A stretch of 64,000 nt of DNA from positions 310,001-374,000 of the forward strand of contig NZ_FXUB01000001.1 in the NCBI RefSeq assembly GCF_900182835.1, written 5' to 3'. The translations under genes were made by a program, and so were the position numbers. The stretch is from Desulfurobacterium pacificum. Its GTDB lineage: Bacteria; Aquificota; Aquificia; Desulfurobacteriales; Desulfurobacteriaceae. Each line of letters begins with the position of its first letter. The stretch's first letter is position 1. Below are positions 11,362 to 16,272 of this stretch, one piece after another. The notes below the pieces were generated by a model. It ran no database searches and was not told where the DNA came from. It saw only the letters and a program-made list of their open reading frames with translations.

Positions 11362-11390
11362 TTACATTACCACCAGAAACGGAGAGAACC

Positions 11391-12842
11391 TTGCTTCCGG
11401 ACAGGAAAGTAGCGCTGAAAAACTATAGAGAATTGAAGCTGAGGAAAAAAGCATTCATTTATTCTCTCTTAATTCCAGGACTGGGACAGTTTTTAACCGG
11501 TAGAAGAATAACCGGAATAGCGTTTTTAACGTTTTTTCTCTTTCCGTTTTACTATCTCTACTTAATAGGTTTTTCATTAAATTACGGAACAATTTCTCTA
11601 CTTCTATCCCAATCAATTCTTTACTTTTTGCAGGCATGGGACGCATTGAAGTCAGCTAAAAGGGAAACGTCGCCGTGTGAGGATTTTTGCCCTGCAAAAG
11701 TAAATATTCCAGCGTTTATGGGGAAGTGTGAGGAAGGAGATGTGGAAGGGGCGTGGGGGATTTTTTCTATCTATTCTCCTTTTCCATTCACCCTAGGTGA
11801 AATATGCCATGCTCCCTGTGAAGAAAAGTGCGGAATACTTCCAGAAAGACCTTTAAAAATAAGAGAAGTCCACAGAGAATTAGGAAAAACATTTAACCAG
11901 GAAATTGAAGTTAAAAATAGAACACCTTTTTTTCCACTAACTAACAAAAAAGTAGCAGTAATAGGCGGGGGAATTGCAGGTATAACAGCAGCCTACTATT
12001 TAGCATCAACAGGTATTCAAGTTGACCTCTTTGAAAAAGAAAAGGAATTAGGTGGAACCCTAAACTTCATTCCGGAATTCAAACTTGACAAAAAACTATT
12101 CAAAAAAGAAATAGCTTTAGCCACTTCGTTCAACTGTATCCGAATATTTACAGAAAAGGAAGTAAAATCAATACCGAAAACCTACGATGCAGTAATAATA
12201 GCAGTAGGAAGTCAAAAAGAAAAGCAACTCAAAATCCCCACCCACGGCACCCCCAACATCATCTACCCTCTCTCTTTCCTCAAAAATCCCCCCCACCCCC
12301 TCACCTCAAAAAAAATCGTCATCATCGGTGCCGGAGATACCGCCTTTGATGTAGCAAGATTAGCCGTCCGCTCAGGCGCAGAAGCAATCGTCTTTTACCG
12401 CAGCGACGAAAGCTCAATGAAAGCCCAGAAAAAAGAAATATCAGCTGCAATAAAAGAAGGCGTAAAAATCTATACAGATTGTCAGCCCGAAAGAATAGAA
12501 AACAACACAATCTTCTTCAGTTGCGGCAAAGTAACCTTTGACTACTTAGTCCCCGCAATAGGATTTGAGAAAGACGAAAAACTCATCAAAAAGCTGCAAT
12601 CAAGCCACCCAAACGCCGTATTAGCCGGAGATGCAGAAAACGGCATGTCAAACGCAGCGTTAGCCTCATACTCAGGTAAACTGGCAGCCTACAAAGTCCT
12701 CAAAATGCTAAATTTACACAGCAGGGCATGGTTCACAGTTGACGTTAAAGGAAGAAAACCTGCCAGAGCACAGGGCAAAAACGTATTTTTAGTCTCAGAA
12801 AGTTCCCTGTGTCAGCACTGCGGCGAAAAGGTAAGGAGTTAA
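11391..12842 (+). CDS. Fusion of small integral-membrane domain with GltD-like FAD/NAD(P) oxidoreductase
   Basis: 483 residues. Residues 1-90 carry a basic start and hydrophobic helices around LLIPGLGQFLTGRRITGIAF, a TM2-like sequence. Residues about 93-155 hold the N-terminal iron-sulfur domain of glutamate synthase small subunit/DPYD-type enzymes (CEDFCPAKVNIP, then CHAPCEEKCG). Residues 185 on give two Rossmann folds: VAVIGGGIAGITAAYYLAS (FAD) and IVIIGAGDTAFDVARLA (NAD(P)H). The C-terminus has CQHCGEKVRS, a possible extra metal site. No GltB, SudA or NfnA partner is adjacent. Start is TTG with GGAGAG six bases upstream. The membrane fusion is unusual; the substrate is unknown. Confidence 0.82.
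   Translation: MLPDRKVALKNYRELKLRKKAFIYSLLIPGLGQFLTGRRITGIAFLTFFLFPFYYLYLIGFSLNYGTISLLLSQSILYFLQAWDALKSAKRETSPCEDFCPAKVNIPAFMGKCEEGDVEGAWGIFSIYSPFPFTLGEICHAPCEEKCGILPERPLKIREVHRELGKTFNQEIEVKNRTPFFPLTNKKVAVIGGGIAGITAAYYLASTGIQVDLFEKEKELGGTLNFIPEFKLDKKLFKKEIALATSFNCIRIFTEKEVKSIPKTYDAVIIAVGSQKEKQLKIPTHGTPNIIYPLSFLKNPPHPLTSKKIVIIGAGDTAFDVARLAVRSGAEAIVFYRSDESSMKAQKKEISAAIKEGVKIYTDCQPERIENNTIFFSCGKVTFDYLVPAIGFEKDEKLIKKLQSSHPNAVLAGDAENGMSNAALASYSGKLAAYKVLKMLNLHSRAWFTVDVKGRKPARAQGKNVFLVSESSLCQHCGEKVRS
12231..12302 (-). repeat. Double G-tract/GGGATTTT motif in the membrane-redox fusion gene
   Basis: Two copies read on the minus strand, 12231-12255 and 12282-12302, about 50 bases apart. The plus strand between them is a C-rich pyrimidine tract and codons end in C far more than in the rest of the gene. 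Confidence 0.55.
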
Positions 12843-12845
12843 AGT

Positions 12846-13259
12846 ATGGAAAAGTTAGCACCAAGACTTGAAGACTACCTTGAAACTATATATCTCTTAG
12901 AAAAAGAAAACGGCGTAGCGCGAGTAAAAGAAATTGCCGAAAAGCGAAACGTCAAAATGCCAACCGTTACAGAAGTCCTAAGAAGGTTATCAGAAAGAGG
13001 TTACATTAACTACGAACCCTACGGCTACGTTACAACAACAGAAAAAGGCAAAGCTTACGCAGAAAAGATATACAACAAGCACGAAGCTATAATAAATTTC
13101 ATGAAAAAAGTTCTACTACTGCCGGAAGAAAAAGCCGAAGAGGAAGGATGTCTCATGGAACACCACCTTTCACCAGAAACGGTAGAGAGGCTCAAACAGC
13201 TAACAGATTTTTTCACAGAAAAAAACTTAGATGGAGAGTTTAAAAAGTGGCTAAAATAG
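12846..13259 (+). CDS. DtxR/MntR-family metal-dependent transcriptional regulator
   Basis: 137 residues. N-terminal winged helix (LEDYLETIYLLEKENGVARVKEIAEKR region, recognition helix near MPTVTEVLRRLSERG) and C-terminal dimerisation/metal domain with EEEGCLMEHHLSPE, supplying Glu, Cys and His ligands. The Cys recalls iron-type DtxR more than manganese-type MntR, but this is weak. The SH3 domain of DtxR is absent. It begins four bases after the fusion redox gene and overlaps the following mqnE paralogue by 13 bases. Confidence 0.85.
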   Translation: MEKLAPRLEDYLETIYLLEKENGVARVKEIAEKRNVKMPTVTEVLRRLSERGYINYEPYGYVTTTEKGKAYAEKIYNKHEAIINFMKKVLLLPEEKAEEEGCLMEHHLSPETVERLKQLTDFFTEKNLDGEFKKWLK

Positions 13260-14377
13260 AAGAGATAGTTAACCCTCAATTGGTTGAAGATAAAAACCTT
13301 ATCAAAATAGCTGAAAAAATCCTAAACAACGAAAGACTCTCTTTTGAAGATGGTATTAAACTATTTGAAACCAACGACATTCTTACGTTGGGCAAGTTAG
13401 CAGACTACGTAAACAGAAAAAAGAACGGACGTCTGGTTTACTTCGTTGTCAACAGACACATCAATCTTACAAACCTCTGTGTAGGAAACTGCAAGTTCTG
13501 CGCTTTTAGGAGAGAAAAAGGAGACCCTGATGCCTATGAACTGACCATAGACCAGGTTCTGCAAAAGATAGAAGAATTCAAAGGAGTTTCCGAAATCCAC
13601 ATAGTCAGCGGATTACATCCCGACTGGAACTACGACTACTACGTTCAACTTCTCAAAGCAATAAAGGAATCTTTCCCCCACATTCACGTCCAGGCATTCA
13701 CTGCAGAAGAAATAGACCACCTTTCACGAATTTCAGGAAAACCGATAGAAACAGTCCTATCAGAATTGATAGAAGCAGGTCTTGACTCAATCCCCGGCGG
13801 CGGTGCCGAAATATTCAACGAATCCCTCAGAAAAGAACTATGCCCACACAAACTTTCATCGGAAAGGTATCTTAAAATCCACGAAACAGCCCACAAATTC
13901 GGTTTAAAATCAAACGCTTCAATCCTTTACGGTCACGTAGAAACCTACGCAGATAGAGTTAACCACCTCTTAAAACTAAGAGAACTTCAGGATAAAACAG
14001 GCGGATTTCAAGCCTTCATGGCTTTTGCCTACCACCCGGAAAATACCCGTTTAGGCGGCAAGTTCACCACAGGTTTTGACGATATAAAGATGCTTTCTGT
14101 AGCAAGGCTAATTTTAGACAACTTCCAGCATATAAGGGCGTTCTGGATAATGTTAGGTGAAAAGTTGGCACAGGTTTCGCTTCATTTCGGAGTTAACGAT
14201 TTAGACGGAACCGTTGTAGAAGAATCAATAACGAGGTCTGCAGGCGCAAAAACAGATTCATTCATGCCAAAAGAAAGACTCATAAAGCTGATAAGAGAAG
14301 CAGGAAAAATCCCCGTAGAACGCGACACTGTATACAACGTAATCAAAATTTACGAGGAGCAACTATGGAACAACTAA
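13247..14377 (+). CDS. mqnE: MqnE-like radical SAM aminofutalosine synthase, paralogue 1
   Basis: Futalosine route to menaquinone: MqnE adds the enolpyruvyl group of chorismate-derived 3-(1-carboxyvinyloxy)benzoate to an adenosyl radical, giving aminofutalosine. 376 residues. The radical SAM cysteines are in CVGNCKFCAF, followed by SGLHPDWNYDYY, IPGGGAEIFNESLRKELCPHKL and the GHVETYADRVNHL helix. CofH/CofG are excluded by PGGGAEIF. GTG start at 13247 follows GGAGAG and overlaps the regulator. It differs from paralogue 2 at positions usually conserved (SGLHPD, FAYHPENTRLGG), so it may have specialised. Confidence 0.83.
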   Translation: MAKIEEIVNPQLVEDKNLIKIAEKILNNERLSFEDGIKLFETNDILTLGKLADYVNRKKNGRLVYFVVNRHINLTNLCVGNCKFCAFRREKGDPDAYELTIDQVLQKIEEFKGVSEIHIVSGLHPDWNYDYYVQLLKAIKESFPHIHVQAFTAEEIDHLSRISGKPIETVLSELIEAGLDSIPGGGAEIFNESLRKELCPHKLSSERYLKIHETAHKFGLKSNASILYGHVETYADRVNHLLKLRELQDKTGGFQAFMAFAYHPENTRLGGKFTTGFDDIKMLSVARLILDNFQHIRAFWIMLGEKLAQVSLHFGVNDLDGTVVEESITRSAGAKTDSFMPKERLIKLIREAGKIPVERDTVYNVIKIYEEQLWNN

Positions 14378-15486
14378 TTTCCCTACTTGACAAGGAATTA
14401 ATACCTATAGCAGAAAAGGTTTTCAACGGCGAAAGGCTCTCTTTTGAAGATGGCTTAAAGCTCTTTGAGTCAAGCAACTTAACAGCAATAGGAATGCTGG
14501 CAAACTACGTTGCAGAAAAGAAAAACGGAAAATTCGCCTACTTTAACGTAAACGTTCACATAACCCCAACCAACATCTGCATCGGCACCTGCAAGTTCTG
14601 TGCTTTCAGAAAAAGCAAAAACGACCCAGACGCCTATGAATTAACTACAGAAGAAATAGTCAAAAAACTAAAAGACTACTACTCTCAAAACCCAAATCTC
14701 ACAGAAGTTCACATAGTAGGCGGATTACACCCCGACTGGAACTACAACCGCTTCATTGAAATAATAAGAGCAGTAAGAGAAAACTTCCCCGATATCCACA
14801 TTAAAGCTTACACCGCAGAAGAAATCAAATACATAGCTGAAAAGGGTAACAAAAGCGTAGAAGAAACTCTGCACGAACTAATAGAAGCAGGACTTAATTC
14901 AATTCCAGGCGGCGGTGGAGAGATATTCAACGAAAGAATCCGCCAGAAGATATGTCCTGAAAAGATAACCGCCGAGGAATACCTGCAAATTCACAAAACA
15001 GCCCATAGAATGGGGCTAAAATCCAACGCAACCATGCTTTTCGGTCACGTAGAAACTTATGCAGACAGAGTTGACCACCTTATTAGGTTAAGAGAAGCTC
15101 AAGATGAAACGGGAGGCTTTCAAACTTTTATTCCCCTTGCCTTTCACCCACTAAACACGAAAATCCCCAACGCCAATTACACAACAGGCGTTGATGAACT
15201 TAAAACGATAGCTGTTTCAAGGCTAATCTTAGACAACTTCCCACATATCAAAGCCTACTGGATAATGTTAGGTGAAAAGGTTGCCCAAATAGCCCTTCAG
15301 TTCGGCGCAGACGATATAGATGGAACAGTAACGGAAGAAGACATAACTCAAGCAGCAGGAGCAAGAGCAGGACAGTCAATTCCTAAAAGCAGACTCATAA
15401 AACTAATCAAAGAAGCAGGAAAAATCCCCGTAGAACGCGACACCATCTACAACGTCCTTCACATATACAATTCGGAGAAACAATGA
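14365..15486 (+). CDS. mqnE: MqnE radical SAM aminofutalosine synthase, paralogue 2
   Basis: 373 residues, tandem copy of the preceding gene and overlapping it by 13 bases (ATG behind GAGGAGCAACT). Radical SAM motif CIGTCKFCAF, canonical GGLHPDWNY, IPGGGGEIFNERIRQKICPEKI, and NATMLFGHVETYADRVDHL. These match classical MqnE better than the first copy does. A 33-base identical block near the 3' end of both genes is described under findings. Menaquinone is the expected acceptor for the HyaABC hydrogenase encoded at 25-29 kb. Confidence 0.88.
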   Translation: MEQLISLLDKELIPIAEKVFNGERLSFEDGLKLFESSNLTAIGMLANYVAEKKNGKFAYFNVNVHITPTNICIGTCKFCAFRKSKNDPDAYELTTEEIVKKLKDYYSQNPNLTEVHIVGGLHPDWNYNRFIEIIRAVRENFPDIHIKAYTAEEIKYIAEKGNKSVEETLHELIEAGLNSIPGGGGEIFNERIRQKICPEKITAEEYLQIHKTAHRMGLKSNATMLFGHVETYADRVDHLIRLREAQDETGGFQTFIPLAFHPLNTKIPNANYTTGVDELKTIAVSRLILDNFPHIKAYWIMLGEKVAQIALQFGADDIDGTVTEEDITQAAGARAGQSIPKSRLIKLIKEAGKIPVERDTIYNVLHIYNSEKQ

Positions 15487-15881
15487 AAACCCTTTTTGAC
15501 AAACTAAAGAAAGCGTTAGAAAAAGATGAAAACGTCGTATTCGCCTACGTTTTCGGTTCACACGTTAACGGAATTCCTACACCCAAAAGCGACGTTGACG
15601 TAGCCGTATACTTTAAAAAACCGCCAAGAGGAACAGAAATACTTGACTACGCCGTAAAACTTTCAAACTTCCTTAACAAAGAAGTTGATTTGGTAATTTT
15701 TAACCTCGCCTCACCGTTTACCCGCTTCCATATACTTAATACAGGCGAACCGCTGATAGTGAAAGACTCTGAAGCCCTCGCAGAGTTTAAGAGAAAAACG
15801 ATGATAGACTACGAAGAATACAAATACATGGCGGAGGCATTCTTTGCTGAACAGAAAGTTAATAGAGAGAAAGCTAAGTAA
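15483..15881 (+). CDS. MntA-type minimal nucleotidyltransferase (antitoxin of HepT), module 1
   Basis: 132 residues. The nucleotidyltransferase motif is GSHVNGIPTPKSDVDVAVYF, a perfect GSx10DxD, with a third acidic residue in VDLVIF. In MntA-HepT systems this enzyme AMPylates and silences the HepT RNase. It overlaps the mqnE stop by 4 bases and the hepT gene by 38 bases, so the pair rides on the menaquinone operon. Confidence 0.85.
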   Translation: MKTLFDKLKKALEKDENVVFAYVFGSHVNGIPTPKSDVDVAVYFKKPPRGTEILDYAVKLSNFLNKEVDLVIFNLASPFTRFHILNTGEPLIVKDSEALAEFKRKTMIDYEEYKYMAEAFFAEQKVNREKAK

Positions 15882-16272
15882 AATCGTAGAATACGTAAAC
15901 GAAATAAGACAAACAGAAATCAAAGATTTCCACGAATTTCGGAACAACGTAATAGTGAAAAGGTTTATTGAAAGAAACCTTGAATTAGCCATAGAACAGG
16001 CAATAGACATCTGCAGACATATAGCCGTTTCAACGCTTAAAAAACTTCCCGAAAGTTACGCTGAATGTTTTGAACTATTAAAAGAAAAAGGGGTAATTCC
16101 TGAAAAACATGCAGAAACTTACAAAAAGATGGCTAAGTTCCGTAACCTTCTCATTCATATGTATGATACCGTTGATGACGAAATAGTTTACGGCATCTAC
16201 AAAAAACACCTTTCAGACTTCGACCTATTCGTAAACGATATAAACCAATACCTTCAAAATCATTCACCCTAA
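15844..16272 (+). CDS. HepT-family toxin (HEPN RNase), module 1
   Basis: 142 residues, all-helical DUF86/HEPN protein. The catalytic RX4HXY motif is intact in RNLLIHMY (about residues 98-105). Start is TTG at 15844, six bases after GGAGG at 15833-15837; no ATG in a fitting position. It overlaps the partner antitoxin gene. Established for the family: HepT is a tRNA- or mRNA-cleaving toxin neutralised by MntA. Confidence 0.83.
   Translation: MLNRKLIERKLSKIVEYVNEIRQTEIKDFHEFRNNVIVKRFIERNLELAIEQAIDICRHIAVSTLKKLPESYAECFELLKEKGVIPEKHAETYKKMAKFRNLLIHMYDTVDDEIVYGIYKKHLSDFDLFVNDINQYLQNHSP

What the first reader, a model, noticed from the sequence alone, without database searches (positions are those of the whole stretch)
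11391..12842. GltD-like flavoprotein fused to a TM2-like membrane domain
GltD-type enzymes are soluble partners of GltB, NfnAB or similar. Here an N-terminal membrane domain tethers the Fer4/FAD/NAD(P)H module, and a C-terminal CxxC is added. The next gene is a DtxR-type metal regulator, which hints at a metal-linked or quinone-linked redox function.
Basis: partly seen in the sequence, partly recalled or inferred. Interest (0 to 1): 0.52.

Follow-up and report, generated by a model that had tools for sequence, protein, structure and literature searches.

The report
Membrane-anchored GltD-like NAD(P)H flavoprotein
This gene makes an enzyme that takes electrons from NAD(P)H and is built directly onto a membrane anchor, probably to pass the electrons to something in the membrane such as menaquinone; its main parts are known, but this arrangement appears undescribed.

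Summary
The fusion is real. A 483-aa protein (N-terminal membrane hairpin, Fer4_20 Fe-S domain, FAD and NAD(P) domains) is found in 18 of 22 genomes of its family (Desulfurobacteriaceae; one of the 18 is split across two contigs). The same order recurs in two other phyla. Start site, spacer length and selection on the N-terminus argue against a late start or an assembly error. The C-terminal CxxC is not an added centre: it is the Cys pair that ordinary GltD/NfnB proteins carry at their N-terminus, moved to the C-terminus as in StnC/NfnA-type enzymes. Of 51 homologues compared, 50 have it at exactly one end. All 17 Desulfurobacteriaceae sequences have His where StnC has the cluster ligand Lys170 and NfnB has Glu. 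Best reading: a stand-alone, non-bifurcating, membrane-tethered NAD(P)H oxidoreductase that sends electrons through FAD and two [4Fe-4S] clusters towards the membrane, most likely to menaquinone. The acceptor is inferred, not shown. The DtxR neighbour is real, but the operon usually continues into two mqnE (menaquinone biosynthesis) genes, so a quinone link is better supported than a metal link.

The parts
11381..11386 (+). ribosome-binding-site-like GGAGAG before the TTG start
11391..12842 (+). membrane-anchored GltD-like flavoprotein, 483 aa
11391..11669 (+). residues 1-93: basic N-tail, DUF5683/DUF6677-like membrane hairpin with PGLGQ motif (hydrophobic stretches about residues 43-61 and 65-83), linker
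11670..11891 (+). residues 94-167: Fer4_20 domain with C96, C100, C139, C143, C147 and H161 invariant in 17 of 17
11871..11873 (+). codon of H161, at the position of the StnC cluster ligand K170
11943..12710 (+). residues 185-440: FAD and NAD(P) Rossmann domains
12795..12824 (+). residues 469-478 SESSLCQHCG: relocated ExxxCxxC ligand pair
12846..13259 (+). DtxR/MntR-like regulator, next gene
13247..14377 (+). mqnE (aminofutalosine synthase), copy 1
14365..15486 (+). mqnE, copy 2

Best explanation
A single-polypeptide, membrane-tethered NAD(P)H oxidoreductase. NAD(P)H reduces FAD in the cytosolic GltD-like part. Electrons pass to a proximal [4Fe-4S] cluster (C100, C139, C143 and probably H161), then to a distal cluster (C96, C147 and the C-terminal C474/C477). 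The distal cluster is held 12 residues from the end of the last membrane helix, so electrons leave towards the membrane, most likely to menaquinone. Shown by sequence: fusion, conservation, invariant residues and spacing, relocated CxxC, absence of a recognisable adjacent partner subunit. Inferred: cluster ligation, direction of flow, quinone as acceptor.
For: Architecture and conservation. Fold of residues 94-461 like the GltD domain of NfnA/StnC (VIA Z 28.5-30.0). D84 to C96 spacing is 12 in 29 of 29 fused proteins from three lineages. The membrane part (mean pairwise identity 0.61, 19 of 66 columns invariant) is as conserved as the FAD/NAD part (0.58), more than a passive anchor would need. 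Exactly one of the N- or C-terminal CxxC motifs in 50 of 51. H161 aligns to StnC K170 (PMC10482914 section 9). The Arg associated with bifurcation in NfnB (R201; StnC R239) is Lys in 17 of 17. mqnE genes follow in most contexts. MK-7 is the lipoquinone of Desulfurobacterium (passage in PMC12724263).
Against: No quinone site is identified and nothing biochemical is known. Hydropathy is modest: in six sequences of one genus neither segment exceeds a Kyte-Doolittle mean of 1.6. The model's C-tail (453-483) is below pLDDT 50, so placement of C474/C477 at the distal cluster was not tested. DtxR-mqnE-mqnE persists without this gene in 4 genomes, and in G131 and G123 the mqnE pair lies elsewhere, so a functional tie to menaquinone synthesis is not strict. 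His at position 161 also occurs in one unrelated fragment (L146).
Confidence: 0.5

Rival explanations
1. The anchor only localises the enzyme. It reduces a protein partner at the membrane surface (ferredoxin, flavodoxin or a membrane complex), for example supplying electrons to the radical-SAM enzymes MqnE encoded downstream.
For: Two radical-SAM mqnE genes lie directly after DtxR; in 15 of 18 contexts gene, DtxR and mqnE are consecutive. GltD-like modules normally hand electrons to protein partners (recalled).
Against: Radical-SAM enzymes are soluble and need no membrane anchor. mqnE is kept in the 4 genomes that lack the gene. In the loci read from the two other lineages with the fusion no mqnE was recognised beside it by eye.
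Confidence: 0.25
2. Reverse direction: quinol or a low-potential donor drives NAD(P)+ reduction at the membrane.
For: GltD-like flavoenzymes can run both ways; an H2-dependent autotroph needs NAD(P)H (general knowledge).
Against: Menaquinol to NAD(P)+ is uphill and there is no ion-pumping subunit. The Arg linked to bifurcation is replaced by Lys.
Confidence: 0.1
3. Metal-linked reductase (ferric iron or manganese metabolism) under DtxR control.
For: DtxR/MntR-like gene directly downstream in 17 of 18 genomes.
Against: DtxR is conserved in all 22 genomes with or without the gene. In g2 and g7 genomes a spacer with a palindrome-like motif separates gene and DtxR, so DtxR may regulate only its own unit. 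No metal transporter was recognised next to it.
Confidence: 0.08
4. Artefact: late translation start or mis-assembly of two genes.
For: The TTG start is weak.
Against: Same fusion in 18 genomes of the family and 12 outside it; conserved start site; purifying selection on the N-terminus.
Confidence: 0.02

Closest known systems
StnC / NfnA (StnABC and NfnABC transhydrogenases; PDB 8oh5, 9bov, 9n5u)
   Same: Fer4_20-FAD-NAD(P) order with the ExxxCxxC ligand motif after the FAD/NAD domain; best structural matches.
   Different: No NuoG-like or FdhF-like domains and no StnA/StnB-type partner genes adjacent; membrane hairpin instead; His in place of K170 and Lys in place of R239.
GltD (glutamate synthase small subunit) and NfnB/NfnL
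   Same: Same fold and Fer4_20 core.
   Different: They carry the CxxC pair N-terminally (N-terminal match of 4ylf_B). No gltB or nfnA gene was recognised nearby here.
PRK12771 (NF009410, NAD(P)-binding protein)
   Same: Best NCBIfam model by score (238 bits).
   Different: Far below its cut-off of 516; that model is longer (566 positions).
DUF5683 / DUF6677 membrane domains
   Same: PGLGQ-type membrane hairpin; one of 10 N-termini scanned passes the DUF5683 cut-off.
   Different: Only the first part is matched; the window's own score is below cut-off (17.4 against 26.7).

Membership tests
GltD/NfnB-type small subunit | Fer4_20 domain with FAD and NAD(P) Rossmann domains | tested here: met
   Pfam; fold
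GltD/NfnB-type small subunit | N-terminal CxxC ligand pair directly before the Fer4_20 C-x3-C-P motif | tested here: not met
   absent in 29 of 29 fused proteins; present in 6 of 6 canonical rows
GltD/NfnB-type small subunit | partner subunit (GltB, NfnA) encoded nearby | tested here: not met
   window ORFs and family contexts show none recognisable; operon neighbours are DtxR and mqnE
Electron-bifurcating NfnB | Arg near FAD N5 (NfnB R201) and Glu ligand of the proximal cluster | tested here: not met
   Lys and His in 17 of 17; roles from PMC10482914
StnC/NfnA-type permuted GltD domain | ExxxCxxC motif C-terminal to the FAD/NAD domain | tested here: met
   SESSLCQHCG or variant in 17 of 17
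StnC/NfnA-type permuted GltD domain | Lys ligand K170 | tested here: not met
   His in 17 of 17; Lys in the 12 fused proteins of the other lineages
StnC/NfnA-type permuted GltD domain | NuoG-like and FdhF-like domains and StnAB partners | tested here: not met
   483 aa protein with only the domains above; contexts
TM2 domain (PF05154) | score above the Pfam cut-off | tested here: not met
   no hit in 9 of 10 N-termini; 14.5 bits against 27.9 in L069
DUF5683 | score above the Pfam cut-off | tested here: inconclusive
   1 of 10 N-termini passes (L007, 28.1 against 26.7); window 17.4
NAD(P)H:menaquinone oxidoreductase (functional class) | quinone reduction activity | not testable with these tools
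   needs biochemistry

The most novel reading that the evidence does not exclude
A so far undescribed class of one-subunit NAD(P)H:menaquinone oxidoreductase, unrelated to complex I or NDH-2. The GltD-type FAD/2[4Fe-4S] module is welded at a fixed 12-residue distance to a membrane hairpin, with a histidine-ligated proximal cluster tuned for a quinone acceptor. In Desulfurobacteriaceae it usually shares an operon with menaquinone biosynthesis genes.
Probability: 0.3. Interest if true: 0.7.

Novelty: new variant of a known kind. Interest (0 to 1): 0.45.

Why it matters
It would add a compact route from NAD(P)H into the membrane in deep-branching H2-oxidising thermophiles. It also gives a natural series (Glu, Lys, His) at one cluster-ligand position for testing how ligation sets electron flow in the GltD superfamily. 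And it explains the 'extra' C-terminal CxxC, so others need not read it as a new redox centre.

Tried and rejected
Late start or assembly error: rejected. C-terminal CxxC as an additional thiol centre: rejected in favour of a relocated ligand pair. TM2 family membership: below the Pfam cut-off. Separate membrane gene next to an unfused GltD gene in relatives: not looked for systematically; every homologue read with the PGLGQ hairpin was fused.

First structure model (5 sequences) was too poor to use (pLDDT 52.6). The second (12 sequences) is good except for 453-483, so it could not test where C474/C477 sit. Few fold matches covered residues 1-91; this part was not folded alone.

One origin of the fusion: the tree puts the two fused groups apart, but one clade is not rejected (p-AU 0.293). 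Undecided. The search for related loci in genome contigs gave only two orthologues and four weak or false hits: L037-L039 without a membrane part, and L040, where the long ORF on the other strand looks like RuvB by eye. Viral contigs gave no orthologue.

Literature: no paper describing the fusion was found by the searches in the held library. Those listings, passages of three papers, one passage of a fourth and one whole section are all that was seen; most subscription papers are not held.

Rows dropped: one search found 55 Fer4_20 cores; L037 (cut short by the contig end) and L030, L031, L033 (core start misplaced by the regular expression) were left out, leaving 51. L038 runs off its locus and is the one row of 51 with neither motif.

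Full report
Observation. The ORF at 11391-12842 (+) encodes 483 aa. Pfam finds Fer4_20 at 92-167 and Pyr_redox_2 at 186-403. A hydrophobic region precedes them, and the protein ends in SESSLCQHCGEKVRS. In the own genome the only other match covering both parts of the GltD core is an unfused 464-aa GltD-like protein, L002, 33% identical.

Distribution. In the phylum (136 genomes searched), only genomes of the own family (f1) match the N-terminus: 17 full-length proteins including the window, plus G134 split over two contigs, so 18 of the 22 family genomes. Records name the nearest relatives as Desulfurobacteriaceae. All four genomes of genus g4 lack it. G122 has a further C-terminal fragment on a short contig. 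A profile of the N-terminal 167 positions finds the same fusion outside the family, and protein searches then find it in G282 and G293, the only two genomes held of one phylum, and in 10 of 12 genomes of the phylum of G379. In two broad, overlapping samples, matches that include the membrane part number 21 of 391 genomes, 18 of them own family, and 14 of 386, two of them own family. The fusion is therefore rare but real, in three lineages. The proteins outside the family have open frames of 640-740 codons; those read in full (L069, L103, L118, L119) begin with a CxxC...CxxC zinc-ribbon-like stretch.

Is the N-terminus translated? GGAGAG stands 4 bases before the TTG. Six orthologues start with ATG at the homologous site. 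Against the 85% identical relative, residues 2-93 show 13 nonsynonymous and 42 synonymous codon differences. The only other in-frame starts in the first 100 codons are TTG at codons 15, 80 and 86. The membrane part is as conserved (mean pairwise identity 0.61) as the FAD/NAD part (0.58).

Membrane part. Pfam's nearest models are DUF5683 and DUF6677, mostly below cut-off; TM2 itself is not reached. Two hydrophobic stretches lie at about residues 43-61 and 65-83. The N-part holds 8-13 K/R (one truncated row aside) and the loop at most one, which fits a hairpin with both ends in the cytosol. Against this, six sequences of genus g2 stay below a Kyte-Doolittle mean of 1.6 in both stretches.

The CxxC. 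Of 51 homologues compared, 44 have an ExxxCxxC-like motif only after the FAD/NAD domain, 6 have RCxxC only before the Fer4_20 motif, none has both, and one truncated row has neither. phmmer aligned the C-terminal segment of a relative (L072) to residues 12-43 of 4ylf_B, that is, to the N-terminus of a canonical NfnB; the same motif follows the FAD domain in StnC (8oh5), 9bov and 9n5u. So the motif is a relocated ligand pair. StnC's GltD domain holds two [4Fe-4S] clusters (passage). By inference C474/C477 complete the distal cluster with C96 and C147; which Cys binds which cluster in relatives is partly recalled, not read. The AlphaFold model could not test this, because 453-483 has pLDDT below 50.

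Proximal cluster. StnC numbering in the alignment (C114 of the paper falls on a Cys) puts H161 opposite K170, the Lys reported to ligate the cluster next to FAD; NfnB has Glu there (section 9 of PMC10482914). In my set, position 161 is His in 17 of 17 family proteins, Lys in 12 of 12 other fused proteins, and Lys (15) or Glu (7) in 22 unfused ones. One viral-contig fragment, L146, also has His, so the substitution is not strictly unique. The Arg linked to bifurcation (NfnB R201) is Lys in 17 of 17 family proteins but Arg in the other 34. At positions 337-338 the family has R-G or R-S, the other fused proteins L-E, and 21 of 22 unfused ones R-R; that R-R binds the NADPH phosphate is recalled, so NADH or NADPH preference is open.

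Fixed geometry. The Asp that ends the last membrane helix lies 12 residues before the ligand C96 in 29 of 29 fused proteins. A constant distance across three lineages suggests that the distal cluster's position relative to the membrane matters. It also fits one origin of the fusion, which the tree neither shows nor rejects.

Fold. With 12 sequences the model reaches pLDDT 78.3 and pTM 0.77. The best matches are 9bov_A (Z 30.0), 9n5v_A (29.4) and 8oh5_C (29.3), followed by GltD 2vdc_G (28.4) and NfnL 5jfc_L (28.1); neighbouring rows are close to tied.

Neighbours. DtxR follows directly in 17 of 18 family genomes; gene, DtxR and mqnE are consecutive in 15 of 18 (in G130 the contig ends, in G131 and G123 mqnE lies elsewhere). 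The two downstream genes both pass the MqnE cut-off. DtxR is present in 22 of 22 family genomes and both mqnE copies in 21 of 22; G130, 62% complete, shows only a more distant copy. So neither needs this gene. No partner subunit is recognisable next to it. In L118 and L119 (other phylum) the neighbours read as surA/ppiC, mfd, nadA, tatC and moaA by eye (no family search was run on them).

Mechanism. NAD(P)H to FAD, to the proximal cluster, to the distal cluster beside the membrane, to a membrane acceptor. Menaquinone is favoured because there is no partner subunit, the membrane part is conserved, mqnE is next door, and MK-7 is the lipoquinone of the genus Desulfurobacterium (passage of PMC12724263). 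All steps after the sequence features are inference.

Novelty. The parts are known. The combination of membrane hairpin, permuted GltD module and His at the ligand position was not found in the papers searched. I rate it a new variant of a known kind.

Noticed in passing
13247-15486: Two tandem mqnE genes, both above the MqnE cut-off; both copies are found in 21 of the 22 family genomes, and a third, 41-47% identical copy elsewhere in 20 of 22 (perhaps mqnC). Why two MqnE are kept is unexplained.
   Followed up: partly
spacer before DtxR in L043 and L047-L053: Conserved palindrome-like stretch (AACTTAACGGAGTTAG and variants) between the flavoprotein gene and DtxR, possibly a DtxR operator; missing in the window, where the gap is 3 bases.
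   Followed up: partly
15483-16272: MntA/HepT type VII toxin-antitoxin pair directly after mqnE copy 2; in L054 (G122) it lies between the two mqnE copies.
   Followed up: partly
L118 8411-10381 and L119 8996-10957: The fused proteins of the other lineages begin with a CxxC...CxxC ribbon (weak RanBP zinc-ribbon match in L118 and L069) before the membrane part, absent in Desulfurobacteriaceae.
   Followed up: no
L146 3004-3474 (viral contig): GltD-like fragment on an IMG/VR contig with His at the cluster-ligand position and an N-terminal CxxC.
   Followed up: no
12480-12482 (codon of C364): C364 is invariant in 17 of 17 family proteins and absent in the other 34 compared; its role is unknown.
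   Followed up: no
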